Assembly (NCBI GenBank): GCA_958296035.1
Contig: OY282431.1
Span: 3,456,037 to 3,520,036, forward strand
Origin: Paracoccaceae bacterium
Lineage (GTDB): Bacteria; Pseudomonadota; Alphaproteobacteria; Rhodobacterales; Rhodobacteraceae
DNA: 64,000 nucleotides
Reading direction: 5' to 3'
Part shown: positions 51,706 to 57,252 of the stretch, one piece after another
How positions within the stretch are numbered: the first letter of the stretch is position 1
How the letters are laid out: every line of letters begins with the position of its first letter
Position numbers and translations under genes: made by a program
The notes under the pieces: generated by a model
What the model was told of the DNA's origin: nothing
Seen by the model: the letters and a program-made list of their open reading frames with translations, nothing else
The model's database searches: none

Positions 51706-52329
51706 ACGTGCCTTTCTCCTGCCGCAAACCACTGCTGTGCCAACGTGCAGAGGGCTGCATGGACCCCCTCAGGACCTTTGTTTCGCTCCTATCCGCGGGG
51801 TACAGATGTGCGATCCCTTGCGCATCTTGGCCAGGTCGGCGGATTTACCAAAGCGGTCACACGGCCTGAAGGCGGGGCCGGCCGAATTGCTCGCACTGCA
51901 TACTGGCATCCGACCGTCTGTCCAAGAGGACCCCGGCCTTGAAAATACCGTGGTAATCCAGCGTAGTAAATGACTCAGGGCGAAGTGCTCTAGCTGCTGC
52001 TCGCCAACCAATTCCCGGGGCCACGAGGCGGCACCGGCTGGAGCGACAAATTTCTGGTTGATTCGGCCTATCGGGTGCATGCACACCGAAACGGCCATGT
52101 CTCGCCAACCTCCGCGATCCGCCTTGGTTGATGGACACATTCTTGATCGAAAGCTGAAAGGATGTGTAGAGGACCATGTTCGAGTCGAACCCTTTGGACT
52201 GGTTTCGATTGTGGCCGGACAGCCTCGGCAGGTGCTGGACGTTGCCAAGAACAACGATTCTGCGCTGCCTGCATCATCAAGGGCAAATGCTGCCGGCAGT
52301 ATGGTACCTGGCGCCGGGAGTGAATCTGG
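51706..52329. other. 624-bp gap before the ISKra4 element, no gene recognised
   Basis: Frames on both strands have no family motif. The left end of the insertion sequence lies at about 52330. Confidence 0.3.
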
Positions 52330-52349
52330 CATGGCGACATTTTGACCCT

Positions 52350-52858
52350 TCAGCATGCGGCCTCGCAAGGCCGGGTTTGGGTCGTCCAGTCCCTCCTCTT
52401 GGCCATCAGATACTCCCACGCGGCCTCGAAACGACCCGATAGATCCAGACCTCCAAAGCTCAGCACCGCCTGGCCGACCGCCGCTCTCCACCGCATCCCG
52501 CAGCCCTTCATGCGACGCGTGACCAGCAATTTGTTGGTGCATTCCACATCACCCGTGCCGATCGGAAGCACCGCCTCGCGCAGCCGTGCATACTGCATGC
52601 GTCGCCGGTTCTTGCGAAAGTAGCCGAGCACCGTCGTCAACTCCTCGCGCCCGGCCTCCGTCGAGGCCCGTTGACGCTGGTGGCAAAGCGCCCGGATCAC
52701 CTTCTCCACGCCTTTCGCATCTGTCAACAACTCCTGACGGCGACGCTTGAACCAGCGCTCCGGTGCATGCACATGCGCCTTCGCTGCCCCCAGATGCTGG
52801 CACGCATGCCAGAAATCGACCGCTCCATGCGCCGCCCCGAGCTCGTCCAAAAACGTCC
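52350..52858 (-). pseudogene. ISKra4-type transposase, C-terminal part
   Basis: This minus-strand piece reads TFLDELGAAHGAVDFWHACQ, and later AVLPIGTGDVECTNKLLV and RRMKGCGMRW. That is the end of UPF0236/ISKra4-type transposases with the glutamate-containing IGTGDVE motif. It lacks the N-terminal half, which lies at 55991-56864. Joining both pieces at the shared GGAC gives DNWTFLDELG in frame and 461 codons including the stop. Confidence 0.88.
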
Positions 52859-52912
52859 ACAAGTCCCTCTTCTGATGATATAAAACACCACTTTGAGAGC
52901 CAGCCTGTTATC

Positions 52913-53308
52913 TTGTGCCGTCATGGCCATCCTTTCGATGGTCAGGACATCACGGTTCTCGGCAGCCGTCGCCGTGAGGGCTCCGGCCGGCTGATTGTTG
53001 AGGTCGAGTTTGCGGACGGCAGCCGTCAGTGGATGCCGGCCGCCTGGACGAGTCTTGAGCGGCGTTTGGTCAGCGATCTTGCAGTTCATGGACTGCTGGC
53101 GGATTTCATGGCATTGGCGGATCTTGTCAGTGCCTTGAGACGACGGCAGGAAGATGGCGCAAGATCGGGAACGCACCCTGCTGAGCCTGCTGGAGTGGCG
53201 GGAGCAGCAGCAGCGCTGGGAGTCGATACCGGAGGAAGCTCGCCAGGCGTTCATAGAGGTGCTGGCAGATCTGATGATCCGTGTGGCGGCTCGGGAGCAG
53301 GACGATGA
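52913..53308 (+). CDS. DUF5372-like small protein of the recombinase element
   Basis: The product from a possible TTG 52913 reads CRHGHPFDGQDITVLGSRRR, then GRLIVEVEFADGSRQWMPAA, followed by WTSLERRL. The HPF...G.E and D.G....LPAAWTD-type pattern is that of DUF5372 proteins, which I know as companions of such recombinases. The length of about 131 residues includes a low-complexity tail that may not be real, since it overlaps the next ORF. Function unknown; context suggests a regulator or recombination accessory. Confidence 0.55.
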   Translation: MCRHGHPFDGQDITVLGSRRREGSGRLIVEVEFADGSRQWMPAAWTSLERRLVSDLAVHGLLADFMALADLVSALRRRQEDGARSGTHPAEPAGVAGAAAALGVDTGGSSPGVHRGAGRSDDPCGGSGAGR

Positions 53309-53327
53309 CGGAACGGATCACGGCTGA
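53154..53327 (+). CDS. 57-residue helical ORF overlapping the recombinase start
   Basis: ATG 53154 is preceded by a GGCAGGAAG region and the frame encodes MAQDRERTLLSLLEWREQQQ, then IPEEARQAFIEVLADLMIRV. It is one long charged helix, and the stop at 53325-53327 overlaps the recombinase ATG at 53305 by 23 bp, suggesting coupling. It is too short for most gene callers. Small proteins of this kind occur next to serine recombinases; whether it acts as a recombination factor is open. Confidence 0.5.
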   Translation: MAQDRERTLLSLLEWREQQQRWESIPEEARQAFIEVLADLMIRVAAREQDDDGTDHG

Positions 53328-55479
53328 CCATCTGTCGCGCCTTGCCATTGTCTACGTGCGCCAATCGAGCCCGGGTCAGGTTCAGAACAATCGGGAATCG
53401 ACCCGACGGCAGTATGCGATGACCGAACGGGCCCGGGCGTTTGGCTGGCCCGAGCAGCTTATAGAGACGATAGATGGCGATCTCGGGATGAGCGGTGCGG
53501 TTGCGGGGTTGCGTCGGGGTTTTGACCAGCTGTGCCGGAAGGTTGAACTTGGTCAGGTTGGTGCGGTGTTCGGGATTGAGATGTCGCGTCTGTCTCGCAA
53601 CCAGGTCGAATGGGTTCACCTGGTGGATCTTTGCTGCCGGACTGGCACGCTGATTGTCGAGGACAGTCACGTTTATACCCCGGGGCGCAATGATGACGAT
53701 CTGATCCTGGGCATCAAAGGGGCCGTCAATGCCTCGGAACTGTCGATCATCAAAAGTCGTCTGCTCGGCGGGCAGCGCAACAAGGCGAAGCGTGGAGCCT
53801 TGTACAGCAATCTTCCGGCCGGCTACGTGCTGGCCGGTGAGACGCTTGTCAAGGATCCGGACCAGCAGGTCCGGGATGCGATCGAGCGTGTATTCAGCGC
53901 TTTTCAGGAGGCGGGGACGGCTCGTGCGGCGGCGCAACTTCTGCGTGACGCCGGGGTTCGCGTTCCGGTTTGCAGGTCTGGTCGCTTGCGTTGGCAGGAG
54001 GCGGACTACAGCCGTGTTCAGGCCCTGCTGAAGAACCCGAAGATGGCCGGCGTCTATGCCTGGGCCCGTCGGCCGGGGCCTTTGGTTGGTCCGCATCGCG
54101 AGAACTGGCGGATATGGATTCCGGATCATCATGAGGCTTATGTGGACCTTCGGACCTGGCACCGTATCCAGGACCAGCTGTTTTGCAACCAGGGCAAGCG
54201 GCCGCAGGACCGTGGTGCGCCGGGCGCCGGGCCGGCTTTGCTGCAGGGCCTGGCGGTGTGTGGCCATTGCGGCCGTGCCATGGGGAGCCAGTATAACAAG
54301 TCGTGGCGTTATATCTGCCGGCGCCGCACGAGTTACAGGGGCAGATACGACAGCTGTTTTTCGATTGGCGGTGTTCGCGTTGACAAGTTGGTCGCCGACA
54401 GTTTTCTGGCCGCGGTGGGCTCGGCAGCCATGACGGCGGTGCGGGCGGCGGAAAAGCGTGTTGTTGCCGAGCGAGAGGCCGCCCTGCGCAGTCATCGCCT
54501 GGCGTTGCAGCGTTGCCGTTACGACGCCTCGCTGGCCGAGCGGCGCTATCGTCAGGTTGACCCCGACAACCGGCTGATTGCAGCGACGCTGGAACGGGAC
54601 TGGGAGTTGGCCCTGCGAGAGCAGGCGCGTGCCCGGCAGCAGCTTGATGTGGCCACAGCCGAACACTCACCCGAGCCGGACCCGAAACGGCTGGCGGCGT
54701 TGGGCCGGGAGTTGCCGCGACTGTGGGCGGCAGAAGAGACCACGGCGCGGGATCGCAAGCGACTGCTTGCCTGCCTGCTTGATGACGTGATCCTGAGCAT
54801 CGACCGGGAGGCCATGCAGATCCGTGTTGTCATGCATTGGAAGGGCGGGCGGAGCGATGATCACCACATGCCGGTTCTTGGCGGCTTTCGGAAGGTCACG
54901 CGTGACGATGCGGACACGGTGGATCTCTTGCACCGGCTGGCGGCGTTTTACCCGGATTGGGAGATCGCCCGGGTTCTCAATCGTCAGAAGCGGACAACGG
55001 CCCGGGGGTTGCCGTTCACGGCCGCACGGGTTGGCGACTTGCGACGCCGTCATGGGGTTCCCGTCTGTCCGCCGCCTGAGCCTGATGCGTCGGGCGCGCC
55101 GGTGCTGAGCGGAGCCGAAGCCGCTGCCGAGCTGGGTGTGACGAAAACAACGCTTTACCGCTGGGTCCGCAAGGGGCTGCTGCCGTCGATCCAGCCGGAC
55201 GTTTCCGGTGCCCCGATGCGCATCCGCCTGACCGATGACATCCGGGCCCGGTTCTGCCCCGAGCCGCCGGACGGCTATGTTCCACTGGCCACGGCCGTGG
55301 CCCGTCTCGGCGTCAGCAGGCAAACGATCTGGACGCGCATGCAGGCCGGGACGTTGCCGGCCATCTTTGTCACCCTGGGCCGGAACCGCGGGCTCCATGT
55401 CCGGATCAGCCCTGACCTGGACACCCCGCTTCTGGCCGGACTTGCGTGTCCGGACAGCGGGCAGGTCGGGGAGGGTTGA
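53305..55479 (+). CDS. Large serine recombinase with two C-terminal helix-turn-helix domains
   Basis: The 724-residue protein begins with a resolvase-type catalytic domain: LAIVYVRQSSPGQVQNNRES with the nucleophilic Ser near position 21, and FGIEMSRLSRNQVEW (about 89-103). The recombinase domain follows (ELSIIKSRLLGGQRNKAKRG), with a zinc-ribbon (CGHCGRAM at about 319-326 plus later cysteines) and a coiled arginine/alanine-rich region (about 380-455). The last 120 residues carry two HTHs: LSGAEAAAELGVTKTTLYRW (about 601-620) and LATAVARLGVSRQTIWTRMQ (about 661-680), like Xis/MerR-type domains. No stop or damage is visible. It may carry out both integration and excision of the 3.1-kb element. 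Confidence 0.9.
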   Translation: MTERITADHLSRLAIVYVRQSSPGQVQNNRESTRRQYAMTERARAFGWPEQLIETIDGDLGMSGAVAGLRRGFDQLCRKVELGQVGAVFGIEMSRLSRNQVEWVHLVDLCCRTGTLIVEDSHVYTPGRNDDDLILGIKGAVNASELSIIKSRLLGGQRNKAKRGALYSNLPAGYVLAGETLVKDPDQQVRDAIERVFSAFQEAGTARAAAQLLRDAGVRVPVCRSGRLRWQEADYSRVQALLKNPKMAGVYAWARRPGPLVGPHRENWRIWIPDHHEAYVDLRTWHRIQDQLFCNQGKRPQDRGAPGAGPALLQGLAVCGHCGRAMGSQYNKSWRYICRRRTSYRGRYDSCFSIGGVRVDKLVADSFLAAVGSAAMTAVRAAEKRVVAEREAALRSHRLALQRCRYDASLAERRYRQVDPDNRLIAATLERDWELALREQARARQQLDVATAEHSPEPDPKRLAALGRELPRLWAAEETTARDRKRLLACLLDDVILSIDREAMQIRVVMHWKGGRSDDHHMPVLGGFRKVTRDDADTVDLLHRLAAFYPDWEIARVLNRQKRTTARGLPFTAARVGDLRRRHGVPVCPPPEPDASGAPVLSGAEAAAELGVTKTTLYRWVRKGLLPSIQPDVSGAPMRIRLTDDIRARFCPEPPDGYVPLATAVARLGVSRQTIWTRMQAGTLPAIFVTLGRNRGLHVRISPDLDTPLLAGLACPDSGQVGEG

Positions 55480-55627
55480 CATGCATGACCAAGCCATTGC
55501 ATCGGCAGGGATAAGGCTGCTGCTGCCGGCCTCCGCAAAGCTGTCGCCGGGATCATGGGTGAACCGTTTACAGGCCTCCTGGCGGACAGGCCCTCGATCC
55601 CGTCGGCAGGTTTTTTCCGCCCACCGG

Positions 55628-55864
55628 CATTGTCACACCGTAAACACGGCCCCGAGGCCGAAAAGGCACGCATTGTCACACTGTCAACACAGCGCCGAAT
55701 TACAGCGATCAAGATCATGTGATGCCACCTTGCCGCCCGCATTCGGCCTGTCGGAGGGCACCAATCAGGATCATCAGGGTCGCAAATATCAAGGCAAGCC
55801 ATGCCGTGCCGATGTCCGGAGGGCCCTGAAGCCTCCAAAACCCCCATTGTCACGGGGTAAACAC
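55628..55864. repeat. Three copies of a CATTGTCACnnnGTMAACAC motif
   Basis: Copies at 55628-55647, 55671-55690 and 55845-55864 differ only at the middle three bases and one other position (GTAAACAC or GTCAACAC). They lie in the non-coding right part of the serine-recombinase element and could be binding sites for the recombinase, its accessory protein or a host factor. Confidence 0.7.
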
Positions 55865-55990
55865 GTTACCGCGCCGCGAAGGCCAAACGCATCTGACGCC
55901 AGTTGTCATACATATTCGATATGTTAGTGGTCACCAGGCGCGACGATCAGGATCATAAATAACAAGGGGAGCAATGCAGAAGCGATGTCC
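55707..55990. repeat. Three copies of a GATCAGGATCAT-type motif, two with CGATGTCC ends
   Basis: GATCAAGATCAT at 55707, AATCAGGATCATCA at 55763 and GATCAGGATCATAA at 55945. The latter two are followed after about 40-50 bases by (C/G)CGATGTCC (55808-55817; 55982-55990), and the last of these is exactly the right border of the element. The inner copy may be a second, unused attachment-like site. Confidence 0.6.
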
Positions 55991-56864
55991 AGTTGTCAGG
56001 GGCCCCATCCGCCAGCACCACAAGCTCCAGATCCGGACGCCGCCGCCGGATGCTCTCGCACTCCTGCGCCAACAGGCGCTTCAGTCCCGGCTTGCGCGAC
56101 TCGGGCATGCGACCATAGCGGATCGTATGCAGCTTCTCCCCCCGCGCATCGTAGAACGACACCGCACCGCACGAGGCCTCGCGCCAGCCACTCTCGTCTT
56201 CCTCCTCCTTGCCGCCTCGCAGATTCAGCATCACGCCGTCCAACATCACCGAAAAACTGACCGCTTCCAGCGGAATCTGCTCGCAGGCCCGCAAGGCCGG
56301 CAATGCCTCACCCTCTATCTCTTGCCACGCAACTCCCATCTCCTTCGCCACTCGCCGCAGCGTGCTCGCCGAGGGCTTCATCCCGTCTCCCAGCGCAAAA
56401 CTACGCGCCGCTTCCCGAAACGTCATCTTCGTCACCAGGTGCACGCCTCGACGCGCCGCAGGCGGGGTCATCGCTCCCGCACACAGACAAAGACGCGCAT
56501 CCACAGGACAATACTGCCGCTCGTCGCGACGCCGATAGCGCGACCGCCAGTAGGTGATCGTCCCCAGCGTCGTGATCACCGTCTTCGGCTCGGTCGACAC
56601 ACGGCGCCAGCGCTTGCCCTCGTGCTCAATATGCGGCGCCTTGTCATCCAAAGCCTCGATAATGTCTTGCAAGAACACCCGCTGACAGTGCCGGCCGGAC
56701 TCGGCAATGCCGGTCTCGACCTCGCCAAGGTCTGCCCCGTCCCTGGCTCTGGCCTTCAGGGCTTTGAACGTCTTGATCAACGCCGCCATGGCCTTGACGG
56801 TTTCGTGCGACAAGCCGCCAAGGAGGTTGCAAACCTCGTCATCAAGTGGCACTGGGCTGGTCAT
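55991..56864 (-). pseudogene. ISKra4-type transposase, N-terminal part
   Basis: From ATG 56864 (RBS GGAGAGACTCCCG region) it reads TSPVPLDDEVCNLLGGLSHE, then DLGEVETGIAESGRHCQRVF and TEPKTVITTLGTITYWRSRY. Next come YRRRDERQYCPVDARLCLCA with cysteines, KMTFREAARSFALGDGMKPS and LVVLADGAPDNW with the catalytic Asp. After that the frame enters the inserted element and stops. It is the N-terminal 291 codons of the same transposase as 52350-52858. Confidence 0.88.
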
Positions 56865-56962
56865 CGGGAGTCTCTCCTTACTGATGGTATTAGTTGCTCT
56901 GGAAGACTCCCGATCTTGCACCGCATTGTCCAGCCCTTTGTGGCCGTTTATCGACGGCTTGC

Positions 56963-56996
56963 TGACAGTTTTATTGCCTTTCGGGCAAAACTGTCA
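56963..56996. repeat. Hairpin TGACAGTT...AACTGTCA at the right end of the insertion sequence
   Basis: An inverted repeat with arms TGACAGTTTTATTGCC and GGGCAAAACTGTCA, small loop TTTC. It lies at the putative IS right end and may be the terminal inverted repeat region, a transposase binding site or a transcription terminator that blocks read-through. Confidence 0.55.
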
Positions 56997-57252
56997 TGTG
57001 GAGCCGGAAAACTGGCCGAAATGGACCGTTGAACCCGTCCGAATCAGGTCAGATCGGGCAGAAACAGAAAATTGATGTCGCCATTCGAGATTTACTCCCC
57101 TGGCGCCCGAGTGGAGCTGTTTCTCGACCGTTATTCTGGTAGTGATGTAGCACCTGACTGTTGGCATGGCCTGATTCGAATTGCATTCATGCGCATCTGA
57201 GACAAAAGGCACCGTCCGGTGTAAATGCTCGGGAATTGTGGGCGGGAACAAG

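What the first reader, a model, noticed from the sequence alone, without database searches (positions are those of the whole stretch)
52350..56864. Large serine recombinase element precisely nested in an ISKra4 transposase gene
The two transposase halves rejoin in frame (461 codons including the stop) when the 3132 bp between two GTCCA words is removed, so the insertion is exact and recent enough to leave the target frame intact. The element carries only a DUF5372-like protein, a 57-residue ORF, a 724-residue serine recombinase and repeat-rich DNA. It looks like a minimal autonomous element that uses a serine recombinase and targets a sequence around GTCCA inside another transposon.
Basis: partly seen in the sequence, partly recalled or inferred. 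Interest (0 to 1): 0.75.

Follow-up and report, generated by a model that had tools for sequence, protein, structure and literature searches.

The report
Tiny recombinase element nested in transposon
A 3.1 kb DNA element that carries its own large serine recombinase has jumped cleanly into another transposon's transposase gene; many of its relatives insert into conserved-motif codons of other mobile elements' genes, which makes them look like parasites of transposons.

Summary
Confirmed and extended. The window holds a 3132-bp element (52858-55991 with both core copies) encoding a 724-aa large serine recombinase (LSR), a 57-aa ORF and a weak DUF5372-like ORF, lying antisense inside an ISKra4 transposase gene. 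The genome holds four identical copies: two inside the same ISKra4, two at unrelated sites. They show that GTCCA is not the repeat; only CA is shared by all sites, as expected of an LSR crossover core. The ISKra4-plus-element composite occurs twice with different 8-bp duplications: it moved as a unit, or its site was hit twice. Relatives (about 34-52% LSR identity to the window's) fall into clades, many of which insert at one conserved motif of another mobile gene: group II intron RT, IS1380, IS66 TnpB or TnpC, IstB, IS3, DDE transposases, IS110, even other LSRs. In a survey of 82 genomes of one order, 33 of 61 places are contiguous interruptions of such genes (26 of 61 without near-identical references). 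The window's own clade is laxer. LSR elements are known; I found no description of small ones aimed at transposase motifs.

The parts
52858..55991 (+). LSR element with both copies of the CA core; unit length 3132 bp
   Evidence: Four own-genome copies are identical over this stretch; copies L003 and L004 share nothing beyond it with the window except one G at 55992; L002 also shares the host ISKra4
52858..52859 (.). left core dinucleotide CA (crossover site, inferred)
   Evidence: shared by all copies, bases upstream differ by site; diverged copies L005 (85%) and L008 (91%) also begin at ...CA
55990..55991 (.). right core dinucleotide CA (crossover site, inferred)
52913..53308 (+). DUF5372-like ORF; TTG start inferred
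   Evidence: E 5e-4, below curated cut-off
53154..53327 (+). 57-aa ORF with a W..(L/I)P...R motif, overlapping the LSR start; candidate accessory or directionality factor (inferred)
   Evidence: same pattern by eye upstream of L051, L077, L108, L145; a 53-55 aa ORF overlapping the LSR start by 8 nt is annotated in nine plasmid loci; no hit in Pfam, NCBIfam or PHROGs
53305..55479 (+). large serine recombinase, 724 aa, with zinc ribbon and C-terminal excisionase-like HTH region
   Evidence: excise domain 1.5e-9 at residues 601-643; phrog_95 integrase 3e-48
55480..55989 (.). right-end non-coding region; three 29-nt direct repeats at 55627-55655, 55670-55698 and 55844-55872
   Evidence: no Rfam match up to E 1
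55992..56864 (-). N-terminal half of the interrupted ISKra4 transposase
   Evidence: NF033572 profile 18-273
52350..52857 (-). C-terminal half of the interrupted ISKra4 transposase
   Evidence: NF033572 profile 283-413
52316..52340 (+). ISKra4 left terminal inverted repeat
   Evidence: pair I1; identity between L001 and L002 ends exactly at 52316
57075..57099 (-). ISKra4 right terminal inverted repeat
   Evidence: pair I1; identity between L001 and L002 ends exactly at 57099
52308..52315 (.). ISKra4 target duplication CTGGCGCC, left copy
57100..57107 (.). ISKra4 target duplication CTGGCGCC, right copy

Best explanation
It is a small transposable element moved by its own large serine recombinase. 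The LSR excises the element as a circle, or acts on a newly copied one, and joins the circle's attP (...GATGTC-CA-CAAGTC...) to a target by strand exchange at a 2-bp core. It leaves no duplication beyond that dinucleotide. In this genome the enzyme accepts targets with little in common beyond CA(G): codons of an ISKra4 transposase next to its DGAxxxW stretch, an AbiEi-type antitoxin gene, and a spot with no spanning reading frame. In the wider family many clades have hardened this into targeting: each LSR clade recognises DNA that encodes a conserved motif of some mobile-element protein, so one enzyme finds many hosts. Once inside, the element breaks the host transposase or RT but leaves the IS ends intact, so the composite can be carried along by transposase supplied in trans. 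Shown: borders, copy number, shared core, target genes and motif positions. Inferred: circle intermediate, LSR catalysis, trans-mobilisation, role of the small ORF.
For: Four identical copies in one genome, common borders, three different sites. An uninterrupted paralogue of the L004 target in the same genome aligns across the joint. Clade A, core AA: same insertion orientation at 12 of the 12 distinct places whose two ends were recognised, in group II intron RT (DI(x)xFF|D) or IS1380-type (DIDDT|FDAVHG) genes (a further place, L075, had no recognised ends). Clades with a core that reads palindromic by eye insert in both orientations at one target: C (L079/L087 against L092) and E (L031/L032 against L033), as expected if the core sets orientation. 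Pfam on joined target segments: 28 of 30 submitted match mobile-element families, 22 of them across the joint (30 of the 38 segments printed were submitted). A tree of 50 chosen LSRs groups largely by target motif. Survey: 33 of 61 places are contiguous interruptions of mobile genes, 26 of 61 with references of 90% identity or more excluded. The composite occurs with two different 8-bp duplications.
Against: No circular form or excision was tested. The window's own clade is weakly specific. Of the five LSRs in its tree clade, L001 (ISKra4) and L046 (IS4-type) lie in transposase genes; L040 has a DruA-domain gene on one side, no Pfam match on the other; L038 has a Rieske oxygenase gene on its left side; L039 looks like an IS1634-type transposase by eye on one side but had no Pfam hit. 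The own-genome copy L003 lies in no spanning ORF. 28 of 61 places in the survey are not paired: many truncated or rearranged, several without any identified target. No matched random-gene background was computed. Trans-mobilisation is weakened because no full-length ISKra4 transposase was found in this genome. Orientation in clade 3 is mixed (L113 and L128 opposite to L110, L112, L127) with the core not resolved.
Confidence: 0.85

Rival explanations
1. The element does not move itself now; it is passive cargo of ISKra4, and the copies elsewhere are old.
For: ISKra4 plus element occurs twice with different 8-bp duplications and no difference between the two.
Against: Two further copies, also identical, lie outside any ISKra4 with borders at the CA core.
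Confidence: 0.07
2. The LSR inserted independently into two existing identical ISKra4 copies at the same codon, rather than the composite moving as a unit. (This concerns the second ISKra4 copy only and is compatible with the main explanation.)
For: Related clades are site-specific; no full-length ISKra4 transposase was found in this genome to act in trans.
Against: The other two sites of this LSR share almost nothing with the ISKra4 site beyond CA, so a double hit on one codon is less likely.
Confidence: 0.25
3. The element is a decayed phage, IME or ICE fragment whose integrase happens to sit in an IS.
For: LSRs are typical phage and ICE integrases; phrog_95 integrase match 3e-48.
Against: Identical short borders in four copies without other cargo; related elements of 2.4-2.7 kb elsewhere; no match in 50,697 phage records at E 1e-20.
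Confidence: 0.04
4. The link with transposase motifs in the family is a survival or sampling effect: elements persist best in dispensable mobile genes, with no target recognition.
For: Mobile genes are dispensable and abundant on the plasmids and genomes sampled; no matched background was computed.
Against: Within a clade the joint falls at the same few codons in homologues of different sequence (IstB Walker A in L115, L117, L133, L136 of clade 2 and in L048; RT motif in five RTs). Selection alone does not give that.
Confidence: 0.1

Closest known systems
Multi-targeting LSRs (PMC10083194, Nat Biotechnol 2022; passages read)
   Same: LSR clusters that integrate into several gene clusters, aligned on a short core dinucleotide.
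   Different: 63% of that paper's multi-targeting clade carry DUF4368, which is not among the Pfam matches of the window LSR. The passages read report target genes (of LSRs outside that clade) enriched for competence genes; they do not mention transposase motifs or 2-3 kb IS-like elements.
Tn4451/TnpX and Tn5397/TndX serine-recombinase transposons (recalled)
   Same: Autonomous elements moved by an LSR through a circle with a 2-bp core.
   Different: Those carry mobilisation or conjugation and resistance genes; here no cargo beyond one or two small ORFs.
IS607 family (abstracts seen in listing)
   Same: A small IS with a serine transposase, no terminal inverted repeats and no target duplication.
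   Different: IS607 TnpA binds DNA with an N-terminal domain; here a 724-aa LSR with C-terminal domains. The NCBIfam IS607 model reaches 28 of 110 bits, on the HTH alone.
Helper-embedded PICIs (PMC10111431; passages read)
   Same: An integrase clade whose subclades respect site groups inside genes of another mobile element.
   Different: Per the passages, phage satellites in prophage late genes, oriented with the late gene; ours are IS-sized LSR elements in transposase, RT and ATPase genes.
Streptococcus suis IMEs with serine recombinases inside ICE genes (PMC7168690; passages read)
   Same: Serine recombinases that target conserved genes of another mobile element.
   Different: Those are mobilisable elements in ICE genes such as SNF2 and PPI; here minimal elements in IS genes and introns at enzyme motifs.
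fdxN element recombinase XisF (NF041201)
   Same: Best-scoring NCBIfam model for the window LSR.
   Different: 66.9 of the 375 bits required, so not a member.

Membership tests
Large serine recombinase mobile element | N-terminal resolvase, Recombinase and zinc-ribbon domains | tested here: met
   all three above Pfam cut-off
Large serine recombinase mobile element | identical short core at both ends, same borders in independent copies | tested here: met
   CA in four own copies; AA in clade A
Large serine recombinase mobile element | insertion orientation follows asymmetry of the core | tested here: inconclusive
   Fits where the core was read: one orientation at 12 of 12 places for AA, both orientations for two cores palindromic by eye. 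In clade 3 L113 and L128 are opposite to L110, L112 and L127, core not resolved. Not testable for the window's CA with three sites, two of them without a common target
Large serine recombinase mobile element | circular intermediate and serine-dependent recombination | not testable with these tools
   needs bench work
IS607 family | small serine transposase with N-terminal MerR-type HTH | tested here: not met
   724 aa, HTH near residue 600
DUF4368 multi-targeting LSR clade | DUF4368 domain | tested here: not met
   absent among the 15 Pfam matches; 63% of that clade carry it per PMC10083194, so absence is not final
ISKra4 (host of the insertion) | ISKra4 transposase, terminal inverted repeats and target duplication | tested here: met
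   NF033572 in both halves, each below the whole-protein cut-off, as may be expected of halves; repeats; 8-bp duplications
Motif-targeting LSR element family proposed here | insertion at a conserved motif of another mobile element's gene | tested here: inconclusive
   met for many other clades; for the window's own LSR one of three different sites is a transposase gene

The most novel reading that the evidence does not exclude
There is a widespread, undescribed family of insertion-sequence-sized elements moved by large serine recombinases (seen here in Alphaproteobacteria, in Pseudomonas plasmids, and in MAG contigs labelled Bryobacterales and Ktedonobacterales). It lives as a hyperparasite of other transposons. 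Each LSR clade has evolved to read the DNA of one near-invariant enzyme motif (RT active site, IstB Walker A, DDE catalytic-Glu region, IS110 motifs) and switches motif over evolution, disabling the host element's enzyme while riding on its ends. The window element is a lax member next to the RT-targeting clade.
Probability: 0.7. Interest if true: 0.82.

Novelty: new variant of a known kind. Interest (0 to 1): 0.68.

Why it matters
If right, these elements are natural integrases already tuned to many different, well-defined motif sequences: a ready series for learning how LSRs choose targets, and a source of multi-target integration tools. They would also be a check on IS and group II intron spread that annotation as 'recombinase family protein' hides, and a ready example of parasites of transposons evolving as their hosts diversify.

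Tried and rejected
GTCCA as target repeat: rejected by copy comparison. Structured RNA: no Rfam match over 52300-57110 up to E 1. Conserved right-end repeats: not seen in the stretches of three clade relatives checked (L046, L038, L040; L038 only 190 bases). Phage origin: no match in the phage collection at E 1e-20. Near relatives: of 195 genomes searched (own included) only the own one matches at E 1e-60. Solved structures: one weak match, 3g13. A consensus among the window LSR's targets beyond CA(G): none seen by eye. Literature: DUF5372 in 0 papers. Searches listed no title or abstract on small LSR elements in transposase motifs; four of the listings are capped (25 of 94, 20 of 45, 15 of 41 and 15 of 86 papers shown), and the library holds open-licence papers only. 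The reference set used for pairing contains loci of the survey itself; one search repeats the count without near-identical references and falls from 33 to 26 of 61. Some readings are by eye only: L041 and L085 (IstA), L108 and L121 (IS3), L039 (IS1634-like), L116, L077. Names of catalytic motifs (Walker A, RT active-site Asp, DDE Glu) and of IS families where Pfam gives only a DDE model (IS1380, IS982, IS4, IS701) are recalled, not computed.

Full report
Observation. The window carries an ISKra4 element (52316-57099, inverted repeats, perfect 8-bp duplication CTGGCGCC) whose transposase gene is split by a 3132-bp insert. The halves join in frame to 461 codons with the stop, and both match NCBIfam ISKra4 at consecutive profile stretches, 18-273 and 283-413. 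The insert encodes a 724-aa large serine recombinase, a 57-aa ORF and a sub-threshold DUF5372-like ORF. It ends in about 0.5 kb of non-coding DNA with three 29-nt repeats.

Borders. The own genome has four identical full copies. One sits in a second copy of the same ISKra4, one in an AbiEi-type antitoxin gene (Pfam AbiEi_3_N and AbiEi_3 in the two halves), one at a place without a spanning reading frame of 60 codons or more. Beyond the element the copies have nothing in common except one G, apart from the ISKra4 pair. The shared core is CA, and all three different sites continue with G. The GTCCA of the finding is CA plus a GTC that is not shared by the other sites. The AbiEi-type gene has an uninterrupted paralogue in the same genome (67% identity over query 1-495 of 520) that aligns across the joint; it reads CC, not CA, at the core.

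Hitch-hiking. ISKra4 with the insert occurs twice, identical from repeat to repeat, with duplications CTGGCGCC and GTCAGGCG. The composite either transposed as a unit with transposase supplied in trans, or the LSR hit the same codon in two existing copies. The first is favoured by the laxity of this LSR elsewhere. The second is favoured by the lack of a full-length ISKra4 transposase now: 15 matches, all partial, 0 over the cut-off, the four halves of the two split copies included. Other element copies on plasmids and in the surveyed order also share long flanks beyond the element (for example L086/L091, L117/L129/L135).

Relatives. The LSR has 459 plasmid records with a match at E 1e-30 (all under 60% identity), 305 of them in Rhizobium, Sinorhizobium and Bradyrhizobium, and none among 50,697 phage records at E 1e-20. 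Multi-copy clusters gave borders for several clades: elements of 2.4-2.7 kb, left end about 220-550 bp before the LSR and right end about 12-62 bp after it in those clades. An ORF of 53-55 aa that overlaps the LSR start by 8 nt is annotated in nine plasmid loci. The W..(L/I)P...R pattern of the window's 57-aa ORF is plain by eye in 5 of 43 loci listed by a simple search (L001, L051, L077, L108, L145), with L050 and L052 similar; for the rest the search mostly picked other frames. In clades whose left end lies only about 240 bp before the LSR there is little room for a DUF5372 gene.

Targets. Clade A (12 distinct places with both ends recognised, 7 targets): group II intron RT at DI(x)xFF|D in five RTs, and two IS1380-type transposases at DIDDT|FDAVHG, always antisense. 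Pseudomonas relatives insert at the same RT motif (Pfam RVT_1 for L053 on one side, no match for the short L055 segment). Others, read and checked by Pfam: IS66 TnpB, IS66 TnpC near ERxxR/GRKNWLF, IstB at Walker A, at NLFFQLV and at LIGD..ADAILDR, IS3-type rve at SVGSVG|(D)SYDNA, DDE transposases at RW.(I/V)E, DDE_Tnp_1_3 (IS982 by recall), IS110, and another LSR gene. Of 30 joined segments submitted (of 38 printed), 22 have a Pfam match across the joint, 6 on one side (L053, L047, L142, L144, L099, L078), 2 none (the window's short ISKra4 segment and L055). One-sided evidence adds ISL3 (L042), DruA-domain (L040) and IS110 (L145) genes.

Survey. To limit picking, the 61 LSR places listed at E 1e-60 in the 82 held genomes of one alphaproteobacterial order were fetched (25 of 82 genomes have one). 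The list is not exhaustive, because the search scored at most 13 first-look candidates per genome. 33 of 61 have pieces of one mobile gene on both sides, on the same strand and contiguous within 25 residues; 26 of 61 remain when references of 90% identity or more are excluded. The other 28 include truncated or rearranged loci. Several of them show a mobile gene on one side (for example L104, L116, L124, L150, L154), and several have no identified target (for example L049, L111, L131, L158). Some of the 33 share flanks and count one composite more than once; by my reading about 26 are independent. No matched random background was computed.

Tree. A FastTree of 50 chosen LSRs groups them largely by target: RT 1.0, IS66 TnpB 1.0, IS66 TnpC 1.0, IstB C-terminal site 1.0, DDE catalytic-Glu clade (L142-L144) 1.0. 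Exceptions: IstB Walker A, IS66 TnpC and IS110 targets interleave in one clade (L047, L084, L078, L048), and L102/L105 differ in target. The window LSR falls with L046, L038, L039 and L040 (support 1.0), next to the RT clade (0.98). L046 sits in an IS4-type transposase at RWEVEL|FFRWLKQ (Pfam DDE_Tnp_1 across the joint), but L038 has a Rieske oxygenase gene on its left side.

Mechanism. The evidence fits LSR strand exchange at a 2-bp core. The core is shared by the copies of a clade, nothing else is duplicated, and orientation is fixed where the core is asymmetric (AA, 12 of 12 places) and free where it reads palindromic (clades C and E). Clade 3 is mixed in orientation, with the core unresolved. 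Circle formation, catalysis and the role of the small ORF are inferred.

Comparison. Membership in the broad class of LSR mobile elements is met as far as sequence can tell. IS607 and DUF4368-type membership are not met. The idea of an integrase clade that keeps to the genes of other mobile elements has precedents in helper-embedded PICIs and serine-recombinase IMEs in ICEs. What appears new is the IS-sized LSR element and the aim at motif codons of transposases, RTs and IstB. No such description appeared in the listings named under Tried and rejected.

Noticed in passing
L031, L032, L033 (own genome C1:584752, 2996985, 446434): A second LSR element family (2364 bp) in the same genome, three copies, all in an IS982-type transposase (Pfam DDE_Tnp_1_3) at RINM|RNYLMP, in both orientations around the palindrome TGCGCA.
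   Followed up: yes
L099-L101 (NZ_CP080528.1, three places): LSR elements inserted inside the recombinase gene of other LSR elements, at ...(T)(V/L)I|MSExEL.
   Followed up: partly
L005/L006 (C1:3625747) and L008 (C1:1374177): Diverged, broken copies (85-91%) of the window element that also start at ...CA; older rounds of activity.
   Followed up: partly
window 55627-55872: Three 29-nt direct repeats (ATTGTCAC...GT(A/C)AACAC) in the right-end non-coding region, not found in the clade relatives checked.
   Followed up: partly
window 53305-55479, residues from about 600: The LSR ends in two excisionase/MerR-like HTH stretches, which could act in targeting or directionality.
   Followed up: no
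own genome, 15 places: Only partial ISKra4 transposase matches; no full-length copy was found in this genome.
   Followed up: yes
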